A stretch of 51,215 nucleotides of DNA, from positions 1-51,215 of the IMG/VR virus record IMGVR_UViG_3300035698_028037; one strand, written 5' to 3'. A program made the position numbers and the translations under genes. Source of the DNA: a virus. Of the stretch, positions 1-51,215 are shown in pieces. Each line of letters opens with the position of its first letter. Positions within the stretch are counted from its first letter, which is position 1. The notes beneath the pieces were generated by a model, which saw only the letters and a program-made list of their open reading frames with translations, was not told where the DNA came from and did not search any database.

Positions 1-127
1 ATCTCAGTGTAGCTATCTAGTTTGTCTATGATAGCCTGTGCTTCTGAGTCAATGTGGCCATCATCATCGATGACCTTGTCCAGATCTATGGCCACATAGT
101 CATCTTCCTCTGAAAATACAAAACCAG
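1..127. repeat. Terminal direct repeat, left copy
   Basis: These 127 bases are identical to 51089-51215. The repeat lies inside the primase-polymerase gene, whose reading frame is continuous across the join, so the unit genome is 51,088 bp. A length of 127 equals a common maximum assembler k-mer, so the repeat is more likely an assembly overlap of a circular contig than a biological terminal repeat. Confidence 0.95.
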
Positions 128-2309: not shown

Positions 2310-4820
2310 TCATACGGACTGGAGGTTACCCCACGATTCACCATATTTGATATCGACTGGGCCGAATGGGACTTTCGTTTCGAAATCAAGATGATTCTCC
2401 ATAGTGTCTTTCATCACCAATGCTGCTTCTCGTAGAGCCTCCTTCTCGATGAGTATCATGATACTATCATGGATCTGAGACCATCTCATGTATCTCATTC
2501 CTAACTCATCGAATCTCTGGCACGTCTTATAATATGCTCTGAATGTCATATCGCTCACGCTACCCTGGATAGGCATATTCACAGCCTGACGTTGAACTTC
2601 TGATCTCTGCTTCTTATCAGCGATCAAGCTAAATCGGCGCTTGCGACCATATAAAGATTGCACCTCATGCGTGAGCAAGACCTGCATCTTCATATTAGAT
2701 ATCCACCACTTGGCTGCTGGCATGATGCTCATCAGTCTATCTATTAGATGTTGAGCCTCCTTTTCAGATACACCTAATTGTGGAGCTAGGCCCTTAGCTC
2801 CTCTTCCGTATATGACTCCGAATACGATTGTCTTAGCTGCTCTACGTTTAATCTCCTTTTCCTCTTTAGATAGAGCATTCCACTCATCATCAGACAATCC
2901 ATATAATTGCTTGGCTACTGCCTCATGGATATCTCGTTCACAAATAGCTTGGATGAGATTATCATCCTTAGCGTAATGGCCAAGCATCCTGACCTCTGCC
3001 TGAGGATAATCCCCATATAGGATGAGGAAGCCAGGATCAGAAATATATATATCCTTTATGTCGTTATCACGAGGAGTGCCATGTAGATTCGGATTCGATG
3101 ATGATTGCCTGCCTGTCACAGTACCATGCAAACGCACGCTCGGCCTTATTCTACCGTCTTCCCACATCGAATCTCGTAGACCCTTGAAATAGGTGCCATA
3201 TTTCTTGCTTAGAAGACGATGCCTGACCATGAGCCTAGGATAATCGTGCTTCTGCGCCAACCAGAACAACATATATGTGCTTGTGGATCGAGAGGACATT
3301 CCTTCGAACGTGTGAACCGATTGTGTATGCCAGTATTCCTGAGCCTCGGGATCCTCTACACTTCGTATTTCGTCTAATAGAGTGATCTTATCTATGGTAT
3401 CTAGAGTGCCTCCTCCCATTTGATCTAATTCGAGATTACCCTCGCTCTTCTCACCATAGAGGTATTCTGCTACCTGTTTGGGGCTATTCGGATTTATGTC
3501 TTCTGCACCAGGGAAACCCCTCATTTGTTCTTCTATATCATTGATCTCCCTTAACCACTTATCGCCATTAGCCTCCAAGCGATCTTTGTCCACGAGCATA
3601 CCTGACATATATTGCTTCGTGAAATGGCCTGCTGCTGGCATCAGGAGATTGGTCATGACACTAATGTCTGTGTCATCCATTTCACTACGGAGATCATCTG
3701 TGAGTCTGCGAGTATAGTCTGCATCCGTAGCATTATAGGTTAGTAATTCCTCACGGTCTATGGATTTGACGTCCTTGATCTTATCTCCCATCTTATATGT
3801 AGGAGACTTATAATATGAGACAGCTAGCCTCTCTAGATCATGAACCCCTTTGCGTTCATCAAGGACATAGGACGCGAGCATAGTATCCCATTGATACTTC
3901 GGGCTTATTCCTTCTTGATATAGCCAGGGGATATCGAACATTCCGTTATGGAATGAGCATGAATGCGCGGACAATATGTCATTGAATCTTATCTTAAACT
4001 CTGGATGATCTCGGATAAGATCCCAGTCGAATGCTACTGCCGTCTCCCCTTTCCATGATAAGGCACATGATACTATATCCTTGCCAAGATATCGAAGGCC
4101 ATCTGTCTCAAGATCCACTGCTATTATACTATCAGAGGGTAGCGTCTCTAGGCGATCTAATAGCGCACTCATTCGTCTCATATTATGAGCAGATATGGTG
4201 ATATAAAAGTCTAATGGAGCTTCTATGGAGACAGGACCACCCTTGTAGATCTCTAAAGCCGTATCGAGATCTGAACATAGATCGGGGAAGCCATCGTTGA
4301 ATCTTAGTATGGCAGAAGGATGAATAGAGGAGATCATCACGCACTCATGCCCTGAGATATCTATGATCTTCGGCTTGCCTCTGGCCTTCCCTATAGCCTC
4401 CGTCTTGCTAGTGATAGCCAGATGGCCGAATTTCCCTAGGGGCATAACGATCTTCGGTTTGATCTTAGCCAGCTCATGAAAAAGCCGCTCACGGCAGCAT
4501 TTTATCTCCTTTGATGATGGATCCCTATTTTTGGGAGGCCTGCACATGACAGAGTTGGTATAGTATATCCTCTCGACTTCTACTCCAACCTCAGTCATAG
4601 TCCGTCTGAGTAGCTGACCTGATCTACCAACAAATGGCTTACCCTTCTTTACCTCATCTGATCCTGGAGCCTCTCCTACTACAGCTATGTAACCTTGGCC
4701 GTCACCAGATGGAGGTACTAAGGGCTCATCTTCAAGAGTGCATTCTGAGCATTTAGCGTATGGTAACTTCACGATGGATTGCTCCTCATGAGAGGGCAGG
4801 TTCGGATTCCATGATAGCAT
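2310..4820 (-). CDS. Fusion: family 4 uracil-DNA glycosylase + family A DNA polymerase
   Basis: This 836-residue replicative polymerase has three modules. Residues 1-200 are a family 4 uracil-DNA glycosylase: paired cysteines in KCSECTL, the motif VVGEAPG...KPFVGRSGQLL, further cysteines in SVMCRPP and IKCCRE (four Fe-S ligands), and motif 2 IHPSA. Residues about 205-390 are a 3'-5' exonuclease: VDLETDG (exo I), FHNGMFD (exo II), YNATDAD (exo III). The rest is the polymerase: motif A GDYPQAEVRM, motif B RRAAKTIVFGVIYG, motif C QIHDSIMIL. All catalytic acids are present. There is no 5'-3' exonuclease domain. A glycosylase-like domain fused to a polymerase is also reported, as I recall, for SPO1-type phages. 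The fusion suggests uracil surveillance at the fork. Confidence 0.93.
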   Translation of the reverse strand: MLSWNPNLPSHEEQSIVKLPYAKCSECTLEDEPLVPPSGDGQGYIAVVGEAPGSDEVKKGKPFVGRSGQLLRRTMTEVGVEVERIYYTNSVMCRPPKNRDPSSKEIKCCRERLFHELAKIKPKIVMPLGKFGHLAITSKTEAIGKARGKPKIIDISGHECVMISSIHPSAILRFNDGFPDLCSDLDTALEIYKGGPVSIEAPLDFYITISAHNMRRMSALLDRLETLPSDSIIAVDLETDGLRYLGKDIVSCALSWKGETAVAFDWDLIRDHPEFKIRFNDILSAHSCSFHNGMFDIPWLYQEGISPKYQWDTMLASYVLDERKGVHDLERLAVSYYKSPTYKMGDKIKDVKSIDREELLTYNATDADYTRRLTDDLRSEMDDTDISVMTNLLMPAAGHFTKQYMSGMLVDKDRLEANGDKWLREINDIEEQMRGFPGAEDINPNSPKQVAEYLYGEKSEGNLELDQMGGGTLDTIDKITLLDEIRSVEDPEAQEYWHTQSVHTFEGMSSRSTSTYMLFWLAQKHDYPRLMVRHRLLSKKYGTYFKGLRDSMWEDGRIRPSVRLHGTVTGRQSSSNPNLHGTPRDNDIKDIYISDPGFLILYGDYPQAEVRMLGHYAKDDNLIQAICERDIHEAVAKQLYGLSDDEWNALSKEEKEIKRRAAKTIVFGVIYGRGAKGLAPQLGVSEKEAQHLIDRLMSIMPAAKWWISNMKMQVLLTHEVQSLYGRKRRFSLIADKKQRSEVQRQAVNMPIQGSVSDMTFRAYYKTCQRFDELGMRYMRWSQIHDSIMILIEKEALREAALVMKDTMENHLDFETKVPFGPVDIKYGESWGNLQSV

Positions 4821-4845: not shown

Positions 4846-5949
4846 TTAGATCATGATAGATCTTTCATTCGCTATCATAGTAACGGGTATGAGCGTATAT
4901 CTGTTTATCATTTGTGCTATCCTAGATACGGCCATCTCATTCCAATATATGAATTCATATATCGGAATGATCTTCCGAGACATTTCATCTTGAGCTGGAA
5001 TAGATCCATGAGGATCTCCCTTATATCCTGTGCATATGGCTAATTCATTGAGGCATTGAAGCGCATCCACCTTACATAGAGCTATCTCTGTGATACCTGA
5101 GACTCTAATGGCATAGCCTAGCGCAGGTAGATCGAGCCAGCCTATCCGTCTAGGCCTTTTGGTATTGGTGCCATATTCGTTACCCTGATCTCTGATAAGA
5201 CCTCCGGTCGCTTCCTCGATCTCTGTAGGGAGCGCCCCAGCCCCTACCCTGGTGATATATGGCTTGACCACGCCAATGATCTTCCTTACCATCTTAGGAG
5301 AGACTCCAAGGCTATGACAAGCTGCTGCGGCAGTACATGCTGACGATGTGACGAACGGATATCCCCCATGATCAATGTCTAGCATAATGCCGTGAGCCCC
5401 CTCTACCAGACAGAAACTATGATTATGCAAGGAGGTATCACAGATATTAGCCTTACGACGTATGTTAGGATAGGCACTGAGATTTACATCGCATAGTCGG
5501 AAATTGCTCCTGGAGTATTTGTCCGCATACGCAGGCCCATTCCCACTCAATGTCGTCCCTATTGGGTTCTCTCGCTCTTCCTCTTCAGAAACATCTTGAT
5601 CTCTGTGGGCTTGCGTCTTTATATGACATCGACCGTCGATATGGAGAGTCCATTCCTTAGGTTTGTCATAAAGCTTGATCGCATCCTCTACTCTCTCTAT
5701 TTCTCTATCCAATCTGGTTAGGTCTATCATGCACCCTCTAGCTATCACACAGTGCATGCCATGCATTGATCCTATAGGCACCTGATTGAATGCAAACTTG
5801 TCTCCATTTTTGAACATCACTGTATGACCTGCATTGTCACTACCGTTGACTCTAGCGCAGGAATCATATATGCCTGTCGAGCATAGGTAATCTACGATGC
5901 GTCCCTTACCTTCATCTCCGAATTGTGCTCCGAGTACTATGTCGAACAT
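4846..5949 (-). CDS. Adenylosuccinate synthetase family protein (PurA/PurZ-like)
   Basis: This 367-residue GTP-dependent ligase family member joins aspartate to a 6-oxopurine nucleotide. The GTP loop GAQFGDEGKGR keeps the catalytic Asp (D12), and NAGHT keeps the catalytic His (H42). Also visible are IGTTLSGNGPAY, MLDIDHGGYPFVTSS, TRVGAGALPTEI, GNEYGTNTKRPRRIGWLD and the base-recognition motif CKVD. It is about 60 residues shorter than bacterial PurA. The hairpin before NAGHT reads NGSD instead of the usual GGHN/GGP-type sequence. Phage PurZ enzymes making 2-aminoadenine DNA are homologues; the phiVC8-type, as I recall, replaces the catalytic Asp by Ser, which is not the case here. Substrate (IMP or dGMP) is therefore open. 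GGGGTGA precedes the ATG. Confidence 0.85.
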   Translation of the reverse strand: MFDIVLGAQFGDEGKGRIVDYLCSTGIYDSCARVNGSDNAGHTVMFKNGDKFAFNQVPIGSMHGMHCVIARGCMIDLTRLDREIERVEDAIKLYDKPKEWTLHIDGRCHIKTQAHRDQDVSEEEERENPIGTTLSGNGPAYADKYSRSNFRLCDVNLSAYPNIRRKANICDTSLHNHSFCLVEGAHGIMLDIDHGGYPFVTSSACTAAAACHSLGVSPKMVRKIIGVVKPYITRVGAGALPTEIEEATGGLIRDQGNEYGTNTKRPRRIGWLDLPALGYAIRVSGITEIALCKVDALQCLNELAICTGYKGDPHGSIPAQDEMSRKIIPIYEFIYWNEMAVSRIAQMINRYTLIPVTMIANERSIMI

Positions 5950-6235: not shown

Positions 6236-6934
6236 CTACAACATTAGATCAAGAACTTCTGATCGAGGTTCTGTCCCATTACGAGCTGCCATTTCGTGAA
6301 TCCATGGACAATTATCAAGGGCTGTCTGTATCACCCAGTCAACCGGATACTCGCTTCCATTCTGAGGTTCCATAAACCTCAATATAGGTTCAGATTTCGT
6401 CGGTTCGACCATATAGTTAATGCCATGATAGCCTACTGGAGTTGCCACGATAATCATGTTGCTGCTGATACCCCACCATGACTCGTGATACGCTACCTGC
6501 CCACCGAGTGCTCTGGCGAACCATTCACAATCATGCAACTCCGGTATGTATTCGTGCGTATGTATCTCACTCCAGATTAATAGAGCCTTTAGGCTCTCGA
6601 AGTCTGTCCCTCTGAAGTGGCCACTACCAAGCTTGATCTTATTGGCATTCACCACGTCGATACCGAACTTGTCTACGACGACCTGGGTAATCTTGAGAGC
6701 AGACAGTGATCCTAGGATATTCGGAGGTGGAGGCAAGGATCGAACGTTAGCAGCCTGACAGGTTGATGCCATCTCTCTATAGGCATCACGTTCAGCAGTC
6801 CTATCCTGTACTGTTCTCTGGAGATGGACTATCTCTAGGTTACGTCTATTCGCTCCTGATTCTAGGCCTTTGACGTCTGTCCGAAGTTTTCGTAGTTCCT
6901 GTTCCCTTTTAATGCAATACACTAGGGGATTCAT
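6236..6934 (-). CDS. Cysteine peptidase/transglutaminase-like protein with N-terminal coiled coil
   Basis: This is a 232-residue protein. Residues 8-55 form a predicted coiled coil rich in R, E and L. The C-terminal half has ordered Cys, His and Glu/Asn motifs: LHDCEWFA (C136), GYHGINYMVE (H170) and RFMEPQNG (E189, N192). This order resembles transglutaminase-like/papain-fold peptidases of phages (D.NDC..FA, then GH..N, then EPQ). Such proteins have been suggested to act on cell wall or host protein, but the substrate is unknown. The gene overlaps the end of dpdA by 26 bases and has AAGGAGG before its start. As no lysozyme or amidase was recognised in the genome, it is a candidate lysis or entry hydrolase. 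Confidence 0.6.
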   Translation of the reverse strand: MNPLVYCIKREQELRKLRTDVKGLESGANRRNLEIVHLQRTVQDRTAERDAYREMASTCQAANVRSLPPPPNILGSLSALKITQVVVDKFGIDVVNANKIKLGSGHFRGTDFESLKALLIWSEIHTHEYIPELHDCEWFARALGGQVAYHESWWGISSNMIIVATPVGYHGINYMVEPTKSEPILRFMEPQNGSEYPVDWVIQTALDNCPWIHEMAARNGTEPRSEVLDLML

Positions 6935-7655
6935 GTACTTCCTCCTTCCATATACGGATATTCCTGCTCAAAAGTTTATTATTAAGGGTTATGTCTAGAT
7001 CGAGTTTCACGTCAGGACGTCCGATCTTCATCTCTTGGCCTATCTGCGCGTATAGGGTCGAAATGCTGCTATCAACACCCTCTACACGATCTGGAAATAA
7101 CCTATTTATCTCAGCCATCTCCCTTCTGACTCCAGTATAGCCAAGTAGATGGATACGCACGTTCCTCAGAAGATTCAGATTAGAAATGATGTCTAGAGCC
7201 CATATCCTAGAAGGAAATAGGTCAGGCACTATGAACTTTGAGATCCCGATGGTATCTACTCCCCAGGAGCACATCTCAACGGCGCATGACGTCCACTCAT
7301 CTATATTCTTGCCATGAGGTACGCCCATGAGATTAAGAGTGGGCATCATCCTGTTTGCTTTCGTGAATGCCTCATGTGAGAGGCGCATAGTTGCCTCTGC
7401 ATCATGGATGACATCAGGCAATACCATCTCTTGGCAGCCTAGCATCCTTACCACAGATAACAGAGAATCGATCTTCATAGGGACTCCATTCTCAGCTGCA
7501 CCGTTATCTAGGATAACGAACTTGCCTCCTCGAACCTGCTTTCTGAAGAAGAATTCATAGGCCCAATTATTCATTTGATGCGCTAGGCATAAATGATATT
7601 CCTCTCCATTCTCCATCCATAGGTGGGCCGTCGGAAGGATAGTTGCGATTTTCAT
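6909..7655 (-). CDS. dpdA: DNA guanine transglycosylase (phage DpdA)
   Basis: This 248-residue paralogue of tRNA-guanine transglycosylase is expected to swap guanine in phage DNA for a 7-deazaguanine base. Diagnostic motifs are VILDNGAAENG (D50, the counterpart of the TGT substrate-site Asp), LPDVIHDA, MGVPHGKNIDEW, TIGISKF, HLLGYTG and GVDSSIST (D195, likely nucleophile). The length fits short phage-type DpdA rather than the large bacterial dpd-island enzyme. AAGGGGG lies before the ATG at 7655. The folE, queD, queE and queD-like genes lie upstream in the same operon, separated only by nrdJ. The subfamily (DpdA1-DpdA4) cannot be fixed by eye. Confidence 0.88.
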   Translation of the reverse strand: MKIATILPTAHLWMENGEEYHLCLAHQMNNWAYEFFFRKQVRGGKFVILDNGAAENGVPMKIDSLLSVVRMLGCQEMVLPDVIHDAEATMRLSHEAFTKANRMMPTLNLMGVPHGKNIDEWTSCAVEMCSWGVDTIGISKFIVPDLFPSRIWALDIISNLNLLRNVRIHLLGYTGVRREMAEINRLFPDRVEGVDSSISTLYAQIGQEMKIGRPDVKLDLDITLNNKLLSRNIRIWKEEVHESPSVLH

Positions 7656-7664
7656 TCGTCCCCC

Positions 7665-9359
7665 TTACGTATTACACGTCTTGCATGACAGTATATCATC
7701 AAGAGACCCTCCCTTATATACCGTGATGCCCTTACATCCCATCTCGTATGCCATCCTGAATATTCTATCGACATCCTGTAGGGTAGCACATGGAGGTAGA
7801 TTCACGGTCTTGCTGATACTAGAGTCTATATACTCTTGGAGCTTAGATTGCACTGCTATATGTTCCTCTGGAGTGATATCATACGCAGTGACGAGGTAAG
7901 CCTGCTTAGAGCCTTGGAAGAGAGGATGCCTGATATCGTGGATCCCTGTAGCATCTGTCCGTACATATTCAGCTGCGAATACAGGTTCGATACCACTACT
8001 GACTCCTGCCAAGATGCTAACAGTACCCGTGGGTGCTTGCGTAAGTATAGAGGAGTTCCTCAGCTTTAGACTCAGATACCCGAACTTTGATCCAGATGGT
8101 GAGGACATAAAATCTCTAGCTGAGAACATGGGCGCTTGTCCTCTCTCCTTAGCGAGCTTGGCGCTAGCACCAAATGCCTCTTCCTGTATGAATTGATATA
8201 GCTCAGAAATGAAATCTAACGATTCTTGAGATCCATATCGTATCTTGTTCAGGATGAGTACGTCGGCTAAGCCCATAGTCCCAAGGCCGATCCGACGATA
8301 TAGTTTCTGGAGGCTGTCTATTTGTTCGTATAGAGGAGGACTTTTGTCAATGACATTATCGAGGAAACGTACTCCCGATTTGATAACAGTAGCCAACTCT
8401 CCCTTATTGATATCTCCGTTCTTAGAACACATGGAAACCAGATTGATGGAGCCTAGATTGCAGGATCCATATTCAGGTAGAGGCTGCTCACCACAGGGAT
8501 TAGTGCATGTGAGCCTCTCCCTGGTCATACTCATACGATTACATGTATCGATGAATACGAGACCTGGGCTGCCGCAGAATAAAGCTGATTCGCAGATGGC
8601 TGACCATATGGAGCGGATATCAATTTCCTTATGGGTAGCAAGTCTCCCATCTCTTTCCCATTTATCTATATCTCCGTCCCATAATAGATCGTAAGTAGGA
8701 TCAGAAGTATCTGGGAATCTCAAAGTCCAGGTATCCTCCTGTCCTCTCAGAGCGCTCATAAATCCATCAGAGATGTTGATAGAGAAGTTGGCCCGTTTGA
8801 ATCTATCTGCCTTGACGAACGCTTCGATATCAGGATGCCAATCGTCCATCATGAACATAAGAGCTGCTGTGCGACTACCTCCCTGCCTGACTTGATCAGC
8901 TAAGGCATCTGCTCCTCGCATCCAGCCAACTGGCCCTGTGCTTGACCCGTGGATCCCTTTGACTAATGAACGATCTGGTCGTAGAGACGACCAGTTTATT
9001 CCGACTCCTCCACCTCGGCAGTTAATCTCTATCATCTTATGGATGGTATTAAGGATTGCATCTCGACTGTCCTTACCATGAACCTCATTAGGTGAGTCCA
9101 TCCCAAGTACGAAGCAGTTATACCAGGTAGCACTATGCTGTTCCGATCCTGCCCCAGATAATATACGACCTGCTGGTAGGAATTTGAAATCGCATAGCAT
9201 GCTAAGGAATTCTGCCTCTTCTTGCTCATTATGAGCTACAGCAGATGCTACCCTCCCCCACATATGAGATAGCTTAACCTCCATTAGCTTTTCGCCATGA
9301 CGAAGAGCATAGCGATCTAAGAATACTGTCTCACGTTGATCTGTCCATGGGAATTGCAT
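7665..9359 (-). CDS. nrdJ: Adenosylcobalamin-dependent (class II) ribonucleotide reductase
   Basis: This 564-residue enzyme reduces ribonucleotides to deoxyribonucleotides. The active site shows TWYNCFVLG (first redox Cys), TNPCGEQPL (radical Cys with Asn and Glu), YGSCNLGSINL (second redox Cys), the phosphate motif APTGTVSIL and a C-terminal CKTC pair for re-reduction. No NrdB-like subunit or glycyl-radical domain is present, consistent with class II. It therefore relies on host cobalamin and works in both oxic and anoxic cells. AGGAG lies before the start. It sits within the deazaguanine cluster, between dpdA and the queD-like gene. Confidence 0.93.
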   Translation of the reverse strand: MQFPWTDQRETVFLDRYALRHGEKLMEVKLSHMWGRVASAVAHNEQEEAEFLSMLCDFKFLPAGRILSGAGSEQHSATWYNCFVLGMDSPNEVHGKDSRDAILNTIHKMIEINCRGGGVGINWSSLRPDRSLVKGIHGSSTGPVGWMRGADALADQVRQGGSRTAALMFMMDDWHPDIEAFVKADRFKRANFSINISDGFMSALRGQEDTWTLRFPDTSDPTYDLLWDGDIDKWERDGRLATHKEIDIRSIWSAICESALFCGSPGLVFIDTCNRMSMTRERLTCTNPCGEQPLPEYGSCNLGSINLVSMCSKNGDINKGELATVIKSGVRFLDNVIDKSPPLYEQIDSLQKLYRRIGLGTMGLADVLILNKIRYGSQESLDFISELYQFIQEEAFGASAKLAKERGQAPMFSARDFMSSPSGSKFGYLSLKLRNSSILTQAPTGTVSILAGVSSGIEPVFAAEYVRTDATGIHDIRHPLFQGSKQAYLVTAYDITPEEHIAVQSKLQEYIDSSISKTVNLPPCATLQDVDRIFRMAYEMGCKGITVYKGGSLDDILSCKTCNT

Positions 9360-9372
9360 GTCTTCTTATCTC

Positions 9373-9732
9373 CTATTTAGCCGGACATCTGAAGACCTCT
9401 GCATCGAACTGACCATCTTCAGATACAATGACGAAGGATACCTCGGGCATTAATTCGAGTATCTTCTGACCTATCCTCTCACAACTCATCGTTCCGAATG
9501 AGGGAGGGCCATCTTCCATAAGTCGGAAGTTGACGATCTCTCCTATTACGCTATGGAGCCTCTTCCTGAGATCATGAAATTCTATCCCTCTGTCCTCGGA
9601 TATCAGAGCCTTGGCTTCGATCTTGAATACGTGTGCATGAGGGCTAGCTAGATACTTCCTATGTCCTGGTGCATCTGGCCATTCATGAGTGGCGAGAATC
9701 TCTGTCCTGGCTACTATCTGTGTGACTATCAT
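9373..9732 (-). CDS. QueD/6-pyruvoyl-tetrahydropterin synthase-fold paralogue lacking the catalytic Cys
   Basis: This 119-residue protein starts at the ATG at 9732, preceded by TAGGAG; a longer upstream frame overlaps folE and is less likely. It keeps the T-fold zinc histidines: ATHEWPDAP (H16) and SPHAHVFKIE (H32, H34). The cysteine found four residues before HxH in QueD (C23 of the neighbour at 10943) is Leu28 here. The second half (MSCERIGQKI, then VIVSEDG) matches the family. It probably binds a pterin or deazapurine but does something different from QueD. In this context a tailoring step on CDG (for example the decarboxylase role assigned to DpdL in other phages) is a hypothesis only. 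Confidence 0.7.
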   Translation of the reverse strand: MIVTQIVARTEILATHEWPDAPGHRKYLASPHAHVFKIEAKALISEDRGIEFHDLRKRLHSVIGEIVNFRLMEDGPPSFGTMSCERIGQKILELMPEVSFVIVSEDGQFDAEVFRCPAK

Positions 9733-9739
9733 AGCGCTC

Positions 9740-10300
9740 CTACCTTTCTCCCCTCCGCATAAGGCTGAGACATTCCTGCCTTGCTGCTGGAGAATCTTTG
9801 AATATACCCCTAACGGCAGAGGTGATAGTAGACGAACCATCAGCCTTGGCACCTCGGAAGGAGATACACGCATGCTGAGCCTCAATCATAACACAGCATC
9901 CGTAGGGTTCAATATGCTCCATAAGAGCATCAGCTACATCACGAGTTATCCTCTCCTGTATCTGGAACCCTCTACTAGCAGCGTGAATCAATCTGGCCAA
10001 CTTGCTGATACCTAAAAGCTTCTTCCTGGGTATGTATGCTATGTGAGCCCTGCCCCAGAATGGAAGGAGATGATGCTCACAATATGATGAGAAGAGAATA
10101 TCTCTGACCATCACCATCTCATCATATTTTTCCTCATCGAATACTCGATATAGTTCTGGATCGGAAGGGGTGCATTGCTCTATGAAGGAATCTGCCACTC
10201 TGGTGGGTGTGTCCTTCAGACCCTCTCTTGTGATATCTTGTTCCAGGGCCAGAAGGATCTCAGTGACGGCATTAGCTATCCTTTGCCTATCCAATATCAC
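9740..10300 (-). CDS. folE: GTP cyclohydrolase I
   Basis: This 186-residue type IA enzyme converts GTP to dihydroneopterin triphosphate, the first step to 7-deazaguanines. It shows the zinc and catalytic motif FSSYCEHHLLPFWG (C74, H76, H77), the core GISKLARL, QIQERIT, and the zinc Cys/His segment EAQHACISFRGAKADGS. Length and motifs are those of an intact enzyme. Its ATG overlaps the stop of queE (4-base overlap), and the queD-like gene starts 7 bases downstream, so the three are translated as a coupled block. Confidence 0.95.
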   Translation of the reverse strand: MILDRQRIANAVTEILLALEQDITREGLKDTPTRVADSFIEQCTPSDPELYRVFDEEKYDEMVMVRDILFSSYCEHHLLPFWGRAHIAYIPRKKLLGISKLARLIHAASRGFQIQERITRDVADALMEHIEPYGCCVMIEAQHACISFRGAKADGSSTITSAVRGIFKDSPAARQECLSLMRRGER

Positions 10301-10968
10301 ACTCCTCTCTTATTGCCCCAAATGACCTTATGTAGTTGGATGCTCAAGCGGATGTCTCTGTTGATGCAGAATCCAGCTACTCTCTCTAGCCATATCCGAG
10401 GAGACGGCATAACTGGGCTCACGATCACATTCTGATATAGGCTTAGGAAGTTAATCCAGGAGACTGCCTCATTCAGATCTTCTTCATCTGCCACGACGAA
10501 CTTGATCTGATCACACGACCTACCCTTCATCGGCCTGGTCCAGGCTCTTATCGTGCTACGGAAACTCTCATTCCCTGAGGAAGGTAGCTTCACATCAATG
10601 ACCCAGCTATCTACCAAAGGGATGAGCTCATTACCAAAAGGCAGTTTGAGAAATGCCCAGGAAGGAGGATATATGGATCCATTACTCTCGATCTCTATGA
10701 AATGATGCTTATGGAGCCTCCTGACAAGAAGTTCCAATTCATCTTGTTGGACTAGAGGCTCACCTCCTGTGATACATATCCATTTCTTAGACGGATTGAT
10801 ATCCGTTATCGGAATATCTTGAGTATCGTCATCAACCTGAGCATAGGCTGTATCACACCATTGACAGGGAGGATCCATATTGCAACCTGCTAGGCGGATG
10901 AATGACATCGGGATTCCAGCATGAATGCCTTCGCCCTGTATGCTATCGAAGGTTTCTATGATCTTCAT
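10297..10968 (-). CDS. queE: 7-carboxy-7-deazaguanine synthase (radical SAM)
   Basis: This 223-residue radical SAM enzyme rearranges carboxy-tetrahydropterin (CPH4) to CDG. It shows FDSIQGEGIHAG, a cysteine cluster GCNMDPPCQWCDT (C29, C35, C38) and ITGGEPLVQ. The spacing C-x5-C-x2-C is shorter than the long spacing of the best-studied QueE and should be noted. I chose the ATG at 10968 because GGAGG lies 5 bases before it; an in-frame ATG at 10980 would add four residues. It overlaps the end of queD by 26 bases. Confidence 0.92.
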   Translation of the reverse strand: MKIIETFDSIQGEGIHAGIPMSFIRLAGCNMDPPCQWCDTAYAQVDDDTQDIPITDINPSKKWICITGGEPLVQQDELELLVRRLHKHHFIEIESNGSIYPPSWAFLKLPFGNELIPLVDSWVIDVKLPSSGNESFRSTIRAWTRPMKGRSCDQIKFVVADEEDLNEAVSWINFLSLYQNVIVSPVMPSPRIWLERVAGFCINRDIRLSIQLHKVIWGNKRGV

Positions 10969-11335
10969 CATTGCCTCCATAATATTTCACGCAGCACTCT
11001 GGGCTTTCCCATACTGTGATCCTAGCGAGTGTGACAGATGGAGGGAGGTGGTTTATCATATCTTCGAATATTCTCCGAGCTAGCCACTCTGCGGTAACAT
11101 TAGCCTCATGGAGAGTTTCATTCAGGACATAATGATCGTATTTCTTATTGAGATAGTCCTTCAGTATCTCCTTGATCTCAGCGAAGTCCACGAGCATATT
11201 ACGCGAGTCAAGGGTATCTCCCTTCAATACCACCTCTACTTCCCAACGATGGCCATGCATGCGATTACATTTACCTTCGTAATCAGCGATGAAGTGCGCA
11301 GCGTCGATATGAGTCTTGACCTGCAATCTGAACAT
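10943..11335 (-). CDS. queD: 6-carboxy-tetrahydropterin synthase
   Basis: This 130-residue enzyme converts dihydroneopterin triphosphate to CPH4. Zinc histidines are H14 (DAAHFI) and H27/H29 in CNRMHGHRWEVEV, with the catalytic C23 present. MLVDFAEIK, YDHYVLN, and the C-terminal ITVWESPECCVKY (catalytic Glu) complete the family pattern. TAGGAGG precedes the start. Together with folE and queE this gives a full route from GTP to CDG. QueC, which would make preQ0, was searched for by eye on both strands and not found. Confidence 0.93.
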   Translation of the reverse strand: MFRLQVKTHIDAAHFIADYEGKCNRMHGHRWEVEVVLKGDTLDSRNMLVDFAEIKEILKDYLNKKYDHYVLNETLHEANVTAEWLARRIFEDMINHLPPSVTLARITVWESPECCVKYYGGNDEDHRNLR

Positions 11336-25862: not shown

Positions 25863-26112
25863 ATATCAATCACGTCAGGTACGGTTCGATGATGCCATGC
25901 AAGCGGTCAGGGATGCGATCAGCGTTATCGAGGAAATCAAAGACGAGTTACAGCAGTGGCACGATAACATGGAAGGCACCAACCTGGAGAACACGGAGAA
26001 GTTCACTCAGCTGGAGGAGGCAGCCAGTACATTAGATGATAGCGTGAGTGAGCTTGGGAATCAATGTGATAGCCTTGAGTCAGTCGAGATCCCTGGAGCG
26101 TTCGGTCGCTAA
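25849..26112 (+). CDS. Coiled-coil protein
   Basis: This 87-residue protein starts at the ATG at 25849, preceded by GGAAGGAGA. It is helical and heptad-like throughout (FDDAMQAVRDAISVIEEIKD, EKFTQLEEAASTLDDSVSEL). It is the last gene of the rightward block. Its end overlaps the convergent phosphoribosyltransferase gene by 33 bases. Function is unknown. Confidence 0.7.
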   Translation: MARAKYQSRQVRFDDAMQAVRDAISVIEEIKDELQQWHDNMEGTNLENTEKFTQLEEAASTLDDSVSELGNQCDSLESVEIPGAFGR

Positions 26113-26616
26113 GGAGATATAAGGTAGATTACGATATAGTCCTTCGTAATCCAATCCATATCCCACGACGAATCTGTCCGGTATAATCCTACCAACGAAA
26201 TTGATCTCCACTAGATGTATCCTCTGAGAAGGTTTATCAAGGAGGGAGCATAGTCGAACGGACGATGCTCCTTTCTTCGATATATGCTTGAGAATGAGAT
26301 TAGCCGTCAGTCCAGTATCTACGATATCCTCTATCAATAGGACATCTCGACCGGTCAAGTCGGCTTGCACATCAGAAATGATCTTAAGCTCATTCGTAGA
26401 TCTCATACCCTCATAGCTAGATGCACGAATGAAATCTATCTCCAAAGGGAATTCGAAGTGTCGCACCAGGTCGGACATGAATATGAGCGCTCCGGTCAGC
26501 ACCCCGATCATGATCGGACACTTATACTTGTACTCCCTCGTGATTTCATCTGCGAGGGTCTTGACTATCGCCTTTATATCATCCTCAGATAATAAGGTCT
26601 CATACGTCTTCATCAT
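26080..26616 (-). CDS. Hypoxanthine/guanine phosphoribosyltransferase
   Basis: This 178-residue enzyme has the PRPP loop VLLIEDIVDTGLTA, the upstream IGVLTGALIFMSDLVRH loop, LEIDFIRASSYEG and the purine-site DRFVVGYGLDYEG. These are full-length HPRT features. It makes IMP or GMP from free base and PRPP. A phage HPRT is unusual; with DpdA releasing guanine from DNA, it could recycle that base, and IMP or GMP could feed the PurA-family enzyme. It is the last gene of the short leftward operon. Confidence 0.92.
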   Translation of the reverse strand: MMKTYETLLSEDDIKAIVKTLADEITREYKYKCPIMIGVLTGALIFMSDLVRHFEFPLEIDFIRASSYEGMRSTNELKIISDVQADLTGRDVLLIEDIVDTGLTANLILKHISKKGASSVRLCSLLDKPSQRIHLVEINFVGRIIPDRFVVGYGLDYEGLYRNLPYISLATERSRDLD

Positions 26617-49972: not shown

Positions 49973-51215
49973 GGTTGATCGTCAGATTCAATGAATCCTA
50001 TAGGAGATACCCATAAGCTAATTTGCTTACGACGACCTTCTTCGAATGCACTTATCTTGCGCTTAGAGAACCCCAGGTATATTAGATCATGAGCTACCGT
50101 CTTTACGCTCACTCCACTCAATCCTGCATGGACTCTGACATATCTTGTGAGATCTGACAATCTTATATATAACCTGCCTCTCTTATCAGATGCCATGCTG
50201 TTCAATCCCAATCCGAATATCTTCATGATATCTTTATCTTCTTCTATCAAGGGTAATGAGATCCTAGTGCTGATGTAGTCGTTCAGCCATGTCTGAGCAG
50301 AATCTTCTCTAGTTACAGTATCAATCCTCTCTATAAGAGGCATAAGCTCCCTGGTGATTATCTTCCATCTCTTAAACGCACTATCTCCTAGGTTGAATCC
50401 CATGTCATATAGTTTGGCAGTAGCCTTCTTCGGAGATAATAATGACTCTGCGGTTCCCATAGGTACTCGTACGATAGTCCCATCGTCCTTTTGGCCTTCG
50501 ATCTCATATTCAGAGTCCTGGATGCCATACTGAAACACACGTTTCACTATGAATGGCAATAGACTAAGGATCCCACCTGAATCAGATCCTCTCATTTTGC
50601 CGATAGTCCTCGGGATATAATCCGGTCTCAGGGATTTCTCTATGTCATCTTTACTCCCATGCTTATATCTGAATCTTATTATCAGATCTGCTATTTCCTG
50701 ATCAGACCACTCGCTAGCTAATGTAGCCAGCCTCCAATCATAATCTGACATGCTTATCAGGTCACTATTTTCATGATTCCATGTATCTCTGAACTCTTGG
50801 TCACTCTTATAGAGGGTTTTGAACATATTCTCAGGAGGTTTAGCATCACTATTTAGGATGATATCTCCCGTGGGCTCTGGGCTAGGACAATTGTTATCTC
50901 CGAATACGCTTGAGCAGAGCCATTCCAAGCCTTCTTGATTATCTTTGATGCCGTCCCTATTCTGCCATAGTTCTCCAGTGAGAGCGAAGTATCGGCTCTT
51001 ATCATAGATCTCAACATTGCCCTTACGACATCTCTCACTAGGTTTCTTACCTCGAATGATGATATGGATACCATGATTACTCTTGGATATCTCAGTGTAG
51101 CTATCTAGTTTGTCTATGATAGCCTGTGCTTCTGAGTCAATGTGGCCATCATCATCGATGACCTTGTCCAGATCTATGGCCACATAGTCATCTTCCTCTG
51201 AAAATACAAAACCAG
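49969..51215 (-). CDS. Primase-polymerase, main part (gene continues at 305-1)
   Basis: Together with the 305-1 segment this forms a 474-residue protein. Visible here: AIDLDKVIDDDG (metal ligands), SYTEISKSNHGIHIIIRGK and VEIYDKSRYFALTGE, the core of NrS-1-like primase-polymerases. Then DWRLATLASEWSDQEIADLI, a PriCT-like helical segment. The C-terminal third lacks Walker motifs and looks like a winged-helix region (GVSVKTVAHDLIYLGFSKRK). No helicase domain is attached, so a separate helicase must serve the fork. It likely primes phage DNA replication. The stop shares TTAA (49969-49972) with the fibre gene stop. Confidence 0.88.
   Translation of the reverse strand, partial: GFVFSEEDDYVAIDLDKVIDDDGHIDSEAQAIIDKLDSYTEISKSNHGIHIIIRGKKPSERCRKGNVEIYDKSRYFALTGELWQNRDGIKDNQEGLEWLCSSVFGDNNCPSPEPTGDIILNSDAKPPENMFKTLYKSDQEFRDTWNHENSDLISMSDYDWRLATLASEWSDQEIADLIIRFRYKHGSKDDIEKSLRPDYIPRTIGKMRGSDSGGILSLLPFIVKRVFQYGIQDSEYEIEGQKDDGTIVRVPMGTAESLLSPKKATAKLYDMGFNLGDSAFKRWKIITRELMPLIERIDTVTREDSAQTWLNDYISTRISLPLIEEDKDIMKIFGLGLNSMASDKRGRLYIRLSDLTRYVRVHAGLSGVSVKTVAHDLIYLGFSKRKISAFEEGRRKQISLWVSPIGFIESDDQP
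51089..51215. repeat. Terminal direct repeat, right copy
   Basis: Identical to 1-127. It closes the circle in the middle of the primase-polymerase gene. Confidence 0.95.

What the first reader, a model, noticed from the sequence alone, without database searches (positions are those of the whole stretch)
6909..11335. 7-deazaguanine DNA modification pathway without QueC, with a Cys-less QueD paralogue
FolE, QueD, QueE and DpdA are intact, giving GTP to CDG and insertion into DNA. No QueC (ATP-dependent CDG to preQ0) was found. The queD-like gene at 9373-9732 keeps all three zinc histidines but has Leu28 where QueD has its catalytic Cys. Inference: phage DNA carries 7-carboxy-7-deazaguanine or a decarboxylated or otherwise altered product, and the paralogue does the tailoring. 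dCDG and 7-deazaguanine were, as I recall, reported in phage DNA in recent work, with a decarboxylase named DpdL.
Basis: partly seen in the sequence, partly recalled or inferred. Interest (0 to 1): 0.85.

Follow-up and report, generated by a model that had tools for sequence, protein, structure and literature searches.

The report
QueC-less phage 7-deazaguanine DNA modification operon
A complete phage genome carries an operon that makes an altered guanine for its DNA but lacks the usual enzyme QueC, and in its place has a small QueD look-alike without QueD's catalytic residues, a swap that recurs in dozens of unrelated viruses and probably means a different base (7-deazaguanine or its carboxy form) goes into the DNA.

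Summary
FolE, QueD, QueE, a QueD-fold paralogue, a class II ribonucleotide reductase and a DpdA-like gene form one minus-strand operon (11335 to 6909). The record has a 127-bp terminal repeat, so it is probably complete, and it holds no QueC. The paralogue (9373-9732) keeps the zinc histidines H16/H32/H34 and the ring-binding glutamates E85/E105. It has lost Cys (Leu28) and also the Asp-His dyad of QueD. Its model (pLDDT 92) matches E. coli QueD best (Z 13.1). Its family has homologues in at least a dozen named phages, 77 IMG/VR contigs and a few bacterial chromosomes. It sits beside FolE/QueE and TGT-like genes. Full-length QueC is found in 0 of 30 carriers against 20 of 22 QueE-bearing non-carriers. 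Best reading: it replaces QueC, acting on 7-carboxy-7-deazaguanine (CDG), most likely as a decarboxylase giving 7-deazaguanine for DpdA. The replacement is well supported; the decarboxylation is inferred. 'DpdA intact' rests on context and distant homology. The PurZ-like gene keeps the PurA Asp, so no 2-aminoadenine genome is implied.

The parts
10943..11335 (-). QueD, 6-carboxytetrahydropterin synthase, catalytic residues intact
   Evidence: PF01242 E 5e-34, TIGR03367 over cut-off; Cys23, Asp67, His68, Glu110 conserved in alignment with phage QueD and PDB QueD
10297..10980 (-). QueE, CDG synthase (radical SAM); cluster motif here is CX5CX2C
   Evidence: phrog_2076 E 1e-39; three cysteines, GG and Glu conserved
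9740..10300 (-). FolE, GTP cyclohydrolase I
   Evidence: PF01227 E 1e-60, TIGR00063 over cut-off
9373..9732 (-). QueD-fold paralogue (phrog_17812) replacing QueC; predicted CDG-tailoring enzyme, most likely a decarboxylase
   Evidence: family alignments; AlphaFold2 pLDDT 91.8; Foldseek and VIA best match E. coli QueD; mutual exclusion with QueC
7665..9359 (-). class II (adenosylcobalamin) ribonucleotide reductase NrdJ inside the operon
   Evidence: TIGR02504 480 bits, over cut-off
6909..7655 (-). DpdA3-like putative DNA-guanine transglycosylase
   Evidence: homologues next to the paralogue or QueC clusters in other phages; weak collinear profile match to TGT
26080..26616 (-). hypoxanthine-guanine phosphoribosyltransferase; possible recycling of guanine released by base exchange (inference; outside the operon)
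   Evidence: TIGR01203 182 bits, over cut-off; a PRTase gene lies near the paralogue in 36 of 90 loci
1..127 (.). left copy of the 127-bp terminal direct repeat (complete or circular contig)
51089..51215 (.). right copy of the 127-bp terminal direct repeat

Best explanation
The operon makes 7-carboxy-7-deazaguanine (CDG) from GTP through FolE, QueD and QueE (well supported by family membership). QueC is absent. Its step is replaced by the QueD-fold paralogue, which is inferred to hold CDG by the same 2-amino-4-oxopyrimidine edge as QueD holds its pterin (Glu105 and Glu85) with the carboxylate facing the three-histidine zinc site. With QueD's Cys, Asp and His gone, the likely chemistry is cofactor-free, metal-assisted protonation at C7 and loss of CO2, giving 7-deazaguanine. 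The DpdA3-like protein then exchanges guanine in phage DNA for that base (inferred). The result would be DNA with 7-deazaguanine, perhaps with residual CDG, resistant to restriction enzymes that read guanine N7. Shown here: gene content, absence of QueC, fold, residue pattern, conserved linkage, exclusion with QueC. Inferred: substrate, decarboxylation, insertion into DNA, protection.
For: The family is invariant for H16, L28, H32, H34, F36, R48, E51, F52, S83, E85, E105, D106 across 47 aligned viral sequences. The model is confident and closest to E. coli QueD (TM 0.74, E 3.6e-6; Z 13.1, 106 residues, 1.8 A, with the first non-PTPS protein at 8.8). Full-length QueC is absent from all 30 paralogue carriers and present in 20 of 22 QueE-bearing non-carriers (Fisher p about 2e-12, ignoring relatedness). 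Leaving out the five controls chosen from the literature, 16 of 17 non-carriers have QueC. FolE lies in 58, QueE in 57 and a TGT-like gene in 73 of 90 paralogue loci within 8-10 kb, the main families on the same strand. The window's QueE is 46% identical to one from a QueC-bearing virus without the paralogue, so the last step, not the start of the pathway, is what differs. As I recall it, unverified here, dDG and dCDG have been reported in phage DNA and a decarboxylase DpdL was proposed.
Against: No biochemical or mass-spectrometric data. The only decarboxylase proposed for CDG that I could read about, TubF of tubercidin biosynthesis, is an unrelated UbiD-family enzyme acting on the CDG ribotide (PMC6112128). 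In 63 of 90 paralogue loci, though not in the window, a glycosyltransferase-like gene lies nearby, which is hard to explain if the base ends with a bare C7. TGT homology of the window's DpdA is weak. Host QueC could still act on CDG.
Confidence: 0.6

Rival explanations
1. CDG itself is the inserted base (dCDG). The paralogue is not a catalyst but a CDG-binding protein that protects CDG from host QueC or hands it to DpdA.
For: Loss of all catalytic residues of QueD while zinc and ring-binding residues stay; no other tailoring enzyme recognised in the operon; dCDG in phage DNA is reported as I recall it.
Against: Invariant R48, E51, S83, E85 and zinc histidines over very divergent relatives suggest catalysis rather than mere binding.
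Confidence: 0.2
2. Nucleotide-level route: a phosphoribosyltransferase turns CDG or 7-deazaguanine into a ribotide, the in-operon ribonucleotide reductase makes the deoxynucleotide, and the polymerase inserts it; the DpdA-like gene does something else.
For: NrdJ lies inside the operon and an HGPRT in the genome; PRTase genes near the paralogue in 36 of 90 loci; TubE of Streptomyces is a CDG-specific PRTase (PMC6112128).
Against: A TGT-like gene accompanies the paralogue in 73 of 90 loci; the window's PRTase is an ordinary HGPRTase by TIGR01203 and RNR is common in phages; TubE did not accept 7-deazaguanine.
Confidence: 0.08
3. Host QueC completes the pathway, so the DNA carries preQ0 or a preQ0 derivative and the paralogue does an unrelated pterin reaction.
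For: Many bacteria encode QueC (control genomes); Mycobacterium phage Bipper lacks QueC and the paralogue alike.
Against: If hosts supplied QueC generally, the strict exclusion of QueC and the paralogue over 52 viruses would be unexpected.
Confidence: 0.1

Closest known systems
Phage 2'-deoxy-7-deazaguanine / 2'-deoxy-7-carboxy-7-deazaguanine pathway with predicted CDG decarboxylase DpdL and DpdA3 (Cui et al. 2023, NAR 51:9214, doi 10.1093/nar/gkad657; contents recalled, paper not held)
   Same: FolE, QueD, QueE and a DpdA homologous to proteins of Cellulophaga and Campylobacter phages, no QueC, an extra small protein; Cellulophaga phi19:2 gp040 is a homologue of the window's paralogue near its DpdA-like gp042.
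   Different: Whether phrog_17812 is DpdL could not be read; here an RNR gene sits between paralogue and DpdA, and sequence identity is only about 25%.
QueD (6-carboxy-5,6,7,8-tetrahydropterin synthase), PF01242 / TIGR03367
   Same: T-fold, zinc histidines, glutamates of the ring pocket.
   Different: No catalytic Cys, no Asp-His dyad, no Pfam PTPS match; occurs beside a true QueD.
preQ0 / archaeosine phage pathways of 9g, CAjan, nt-1, Rosebush (PMC6884629)
   Same: GTP to CDG by FolE, QueD, QueE, then DpdA.
   Different: Those use QueC or Gat-QueC; this one has neither.
Tubercidin biosynthesis (TubA-I; PMC6112128)
   Same: Makes CDG and needs removal of the 7-carboxylate.
   Different: Proposed decarboxylase is UbiD-type TubF acting on the ribotide; no QueD-fold decarboxylase.

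Membership tests
QueD (for the paralogue 9373-9732) | zinc-binding histidines | tested here: met
   H16, H32, H34 invariant in 47 sequences
QueD (for the paralogue 9373-9732) | catalytic Cys and Asp-His dyad | tested here: not met
   Cys position is invariant Leu28; no Asp-His
QueD (for the paralogue 9373-9732) | PF01242 / TIGR03367 match over cut-off | tested here: not met
   no Pfam or NCBIfam family
QueD/PTPS fold superfamily (paralogue) | T-fold monomer as in QueD | tested here: met
   Z 13.1 to 4ntm, 13.0 to 4ntk, TM 0.74, pLDDT 91.8
DpdL (predicted CDG decarboxylase) | sequence homology to the published DpdL | not testable with these tools
   paper not held; no held paper names DpdL together with 7-deazaguanine
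DpdL (predicted CDG decarboxylase) | occurs with FolE/QueD/QueE/DpdA and without QueC | tested here: met
DpdL (predicted CDG decarboxylase) | decarboxylates CDG | not testable with these tools
   needs enzyme assay
DpdA3 / TGT superfamily (6909-7655) | homology to the DpdA-like proteins of Cellulophaga and Campylobacter phages | tested here: met
   tblastn E 2e-10 and 2e-4; profile hits
DpdA3 / TGT superfamily (6909-7655) | TGT fold and catalytic residues | tested here: inconclusive
   no PF01702 match, model pLDDT 53, hhalign to E. coli TGT 190 columns but E 0.005 at 7% probability
QueC / Gat-QueC pathway | PF06508 protein encoded | tested here: not met
   no match in a contig with a 127-bp terminal repeat
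PurZ (2-aminoadenine genome) | Ser in place of PurA Asp13 | tested here: not met
   4846-5949 reads GDEGKG; scores 322 bits as PurA against 134 as PurZ; rule from PMC12884076

The most novel reading that the evidence does not exclude
The Cys-less QueD-fold family defines a widespread, QueC-independent branch of 7-deazaguanine DNA modification in viruses and a few bacterial chromosomes (Magnetospirillum), in which CDG is turned into a base other than preQ0. In the large group with an adjacent glycosyltransferase-like gene this base may be further glycosylated, a modification not described as far as I know.
Probability: 0.25. Interest if true: 0.75.

Novelty: new member of a known kind. Interest (0 to 1): 0.47.

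Why it matters
It ties a small unannotated phage protein family to the one step that decides which 7-deazaguanine goes into DNA, by a gene-swap pattern across dozens of viruses. That gives a short list of testable enzymes, including in cultured phages such as Cellulophaga phiST and Acidovorax ACP17, and a sequence rule (paralogue present, QueC absent) for predicting DNA chemistry from genome sequence.

Tried and rejected
A Z-genome reading from the PHROG label on 4846-5949 was rejected because Asp13 is kept. The search for related loci with the window's paralogue, with its DpdA and with the Cellulophaga paralogue found nothing in IMG/VR; the Acidovorax and Synechococcus paralogues found 77 loci. 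The alignment A1 was too divergent to search with. A PDB sequence search with the paralogue profile gave only PH0634 at E 0.046. The DpdA model was poor, and Foldseek on it is not trustworthy, although TGT 5i00 is rank 3. hhalign of a small DpdA set against mixed phage TGT-like proteins gave nothing. Tubercidin biosynthesis was checked as a biochemical precedent: its decarboxylase is unrelated. Weak PF06508 matches in D479, X1 and some IMG/VR contigs are partial (at most 106 of 210 positions, at most 33 bits) and were not counted as QueC. Carriers were found by homology and several IMG/VR contigs are close relatives, so the Fisher value overstates the independent evidence.

Full report
What is there. 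One minus-strand operon runs from 11335 down: QueD 10943-11335, QueE 10297-10980 (overlapping), FolE 9740-10300 (overlapping by 4), the paralogue 9373-9732 (7 bases after FolE), a class II ribonucleotide reductase 7665-9359 and a DpdA-like gene 6909-7655. Further down lie a PurA-type adenylosuccinate synthetase 4846-5949 and DNA polymerase 2310-4820. The paralogue's automatic ORF begins further upstream (9885), but the ATG at 9732 fits the gene order and the start of its relatives.

Is QueC really missing? PF06508 finds nothing in the record. I looked for the motif in all six frames and found none in a suitable ORF. The first 127 bases equal the last 127, the mark of a circularly assembled or terminally redundant contig, so the genome is probably complete. 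Supply by the host cannot be excluded.

The paralogue. It has no Pfam or NCBIfam match and weakly hits phrog_17812, of unknown function. tblastn in named phages found relatives in Chryseobacterium MA9V-3, Faecalibacterium Roos, Synechococcus BUCT-ZZ01 and Vibrio D479. Starting from those, relatives appeared in Cellulophaga phi13:1/phiST/phi19:2, Sinorhizobium Phosso, Vibrio Bakedbeans, the Pseudomonas PA5oct group, Rhizobium RHph_I1_18, Xanthomonas X1, Aeromonas Ahp1 and Acidovorax ACP17, then in 77 IMG/VR contigs and 15 loci of cellular assemblies. In 47 sequences H16, L28, H32, H34, F36, R48, E51, F52, S83, E85, E105 and D106 are invariant. So Leu in place of Cys is a rule of the family, not a quirk of this gene. 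The window's true QueD keeps Cys23, Asp67, His68 and Glu110; the paralogue has lost the first three and keeps the zinc histidines and the glutamates. Profile-profile comparison with phage QueD is suggestive (probability 73%, E 3e-5). The AlphaFold2 model is confident (pLDDT 91.8) and its best match in the PDB is E. coli QueD (TM 0.74, E 3.6e-6; Z 13.1 over 106 residues at 1.8 A). The first match outside the PTPS/QueD family (QueF-like) has Z 8.8.

Linkage and exclusion. In 90 paralogue loci (12 named phages, 77 IMG/VR contigs and the window) the same-strand neighbours within about 8-10 kb are FolE in 58, QueE in 57, a phosphoribosyltransferase in 36 and one of three TGT-like families in 73. 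Of those three, the phrog_10773-like family matches E. coli TGT with 93% probability, the 530-residue family matches phrog_10773 with 92%, and the DpdA3-like family to which the window's gene belongs matches only weakly. Roos has the paralogue next to a phrog_887 transglycosylase but no QueD, QueE or QueC. Full-length QueC occurs in none of 30 carriers and in 20 of 22 QueE-bearing non-carriers (Fisher p 1.8e-12). One of the 20, Bacteroides BS162P1, has a match over two thirds of the model in a partial genome. The two exceptions are Mycobacterium phage Bipper, already known to lack QueC (PMC6884629), and a 25-kb fragment that looks like part of a QueC-bearing virus. Four QueC-positive controls and Bipper were chosen from the literature; without them the count is 16 of 17. 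Related contigs are not independent, but the carriers span at least a dozen phages of different genera and hosts. The window's QueE is 46% identical to that of a QueC-bearing virus, and the closest named relatives of its DpdA include the QueC-bearing phages BSTP12 and Youna2. So modules upstream and downstream are shared and the middle step is swapped.

Mechanism. CDG and the pterins share the 2-amino-4-oxopyrimidine edge that QueD's glutamate holds, and this glutamate is kept. The zinc site is kept. The residues that QueD uses for its own chemistry are gone. A carboxylate on the electron-rich pyrrole carbon can leave after protonation at C7 without a cofactor, so a metal-assisted decarboxylase is the simplest catalytic role (inference from chemistry). 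The DpdA3-like protein would then exchange DNA guanine for the product. Guanine freed by exchange could be recycled by the HGPRT at 26080-26616 (inference). The alternative that CDG itself is inserted and the paralogue only carries it remains open.

Literature. Its content is therefore a lead, not a test. The tubercidin paper shows another way of losing the carboxylate, through CDG ribotide and a UbiD-type enzyme (PMC6112128).

Verdict. I file the locus as a new, divergent member of the QueC-less 7-deazaguanine modification systems.

Noticed in passing
window 4846-5949: Phage adenylosuccinate synthetase that PHROGs labels 2-aminoadenylosuccinate synthetase keeps the PurA catalytic Asp (GDEGKG) and scores as PurA, so it is probably not a PurZ.
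   Followed up: yes
window 1-127 and 51089-51215: Exact 127-bp terminal direct repeat: the contig is likely a complete, circularly assembled genome of about 51,088 bp.
   Followed up: yes
L077:8602-9699 and 62 other loci, also L004:6349-7515 and L015:4446-5606: A glycosyltransferase-like protein of about 366-400 aa lies near the paralogue in 63 of 90 loci but not in the window; it may decorate the modified base or be unrelated.
   Followed up: partly
L119-L122 (Magnetospirillum contigs): Apparently chromosomal module with histidine kinase, CoiA-nuclease-like protein, glycosyltransferase-like protein, the paralogue, a 530-aa TGT-like protein and QueD; possibly a bacterial DNA-modification island or an integrated element.
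   Followed up: partly
L125:5968-8111 and L126 (Streptomyces sp. NEAU-Y11): Divergent homologue of the paralogue beside FolE and a deaminase-fold protein, in two copies in one genome.
   Followed up: partly
L002:12019-13207 (Faecalibacterium phage Roos): Paralogue next to a TGT-like gene with no QueD, QueE or QueC found in the phage; it may draw CDG from the host.
   Followed up: partly
L001:5458-6339 (Chryseobacterium phage MA9V-3): The paralogue is the C-terminal part of a 293-aa protein; matches in proteins named AAA-type and alcohol-dehydrogenase-type appear among viral models, so fusions may be common.
   Followed up: no
window 10297-10980: QueE cluster motif has CX5CX2C spacing rather than the CX3CX2C seen in several of the aligned relatives.
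   Followed up: partly
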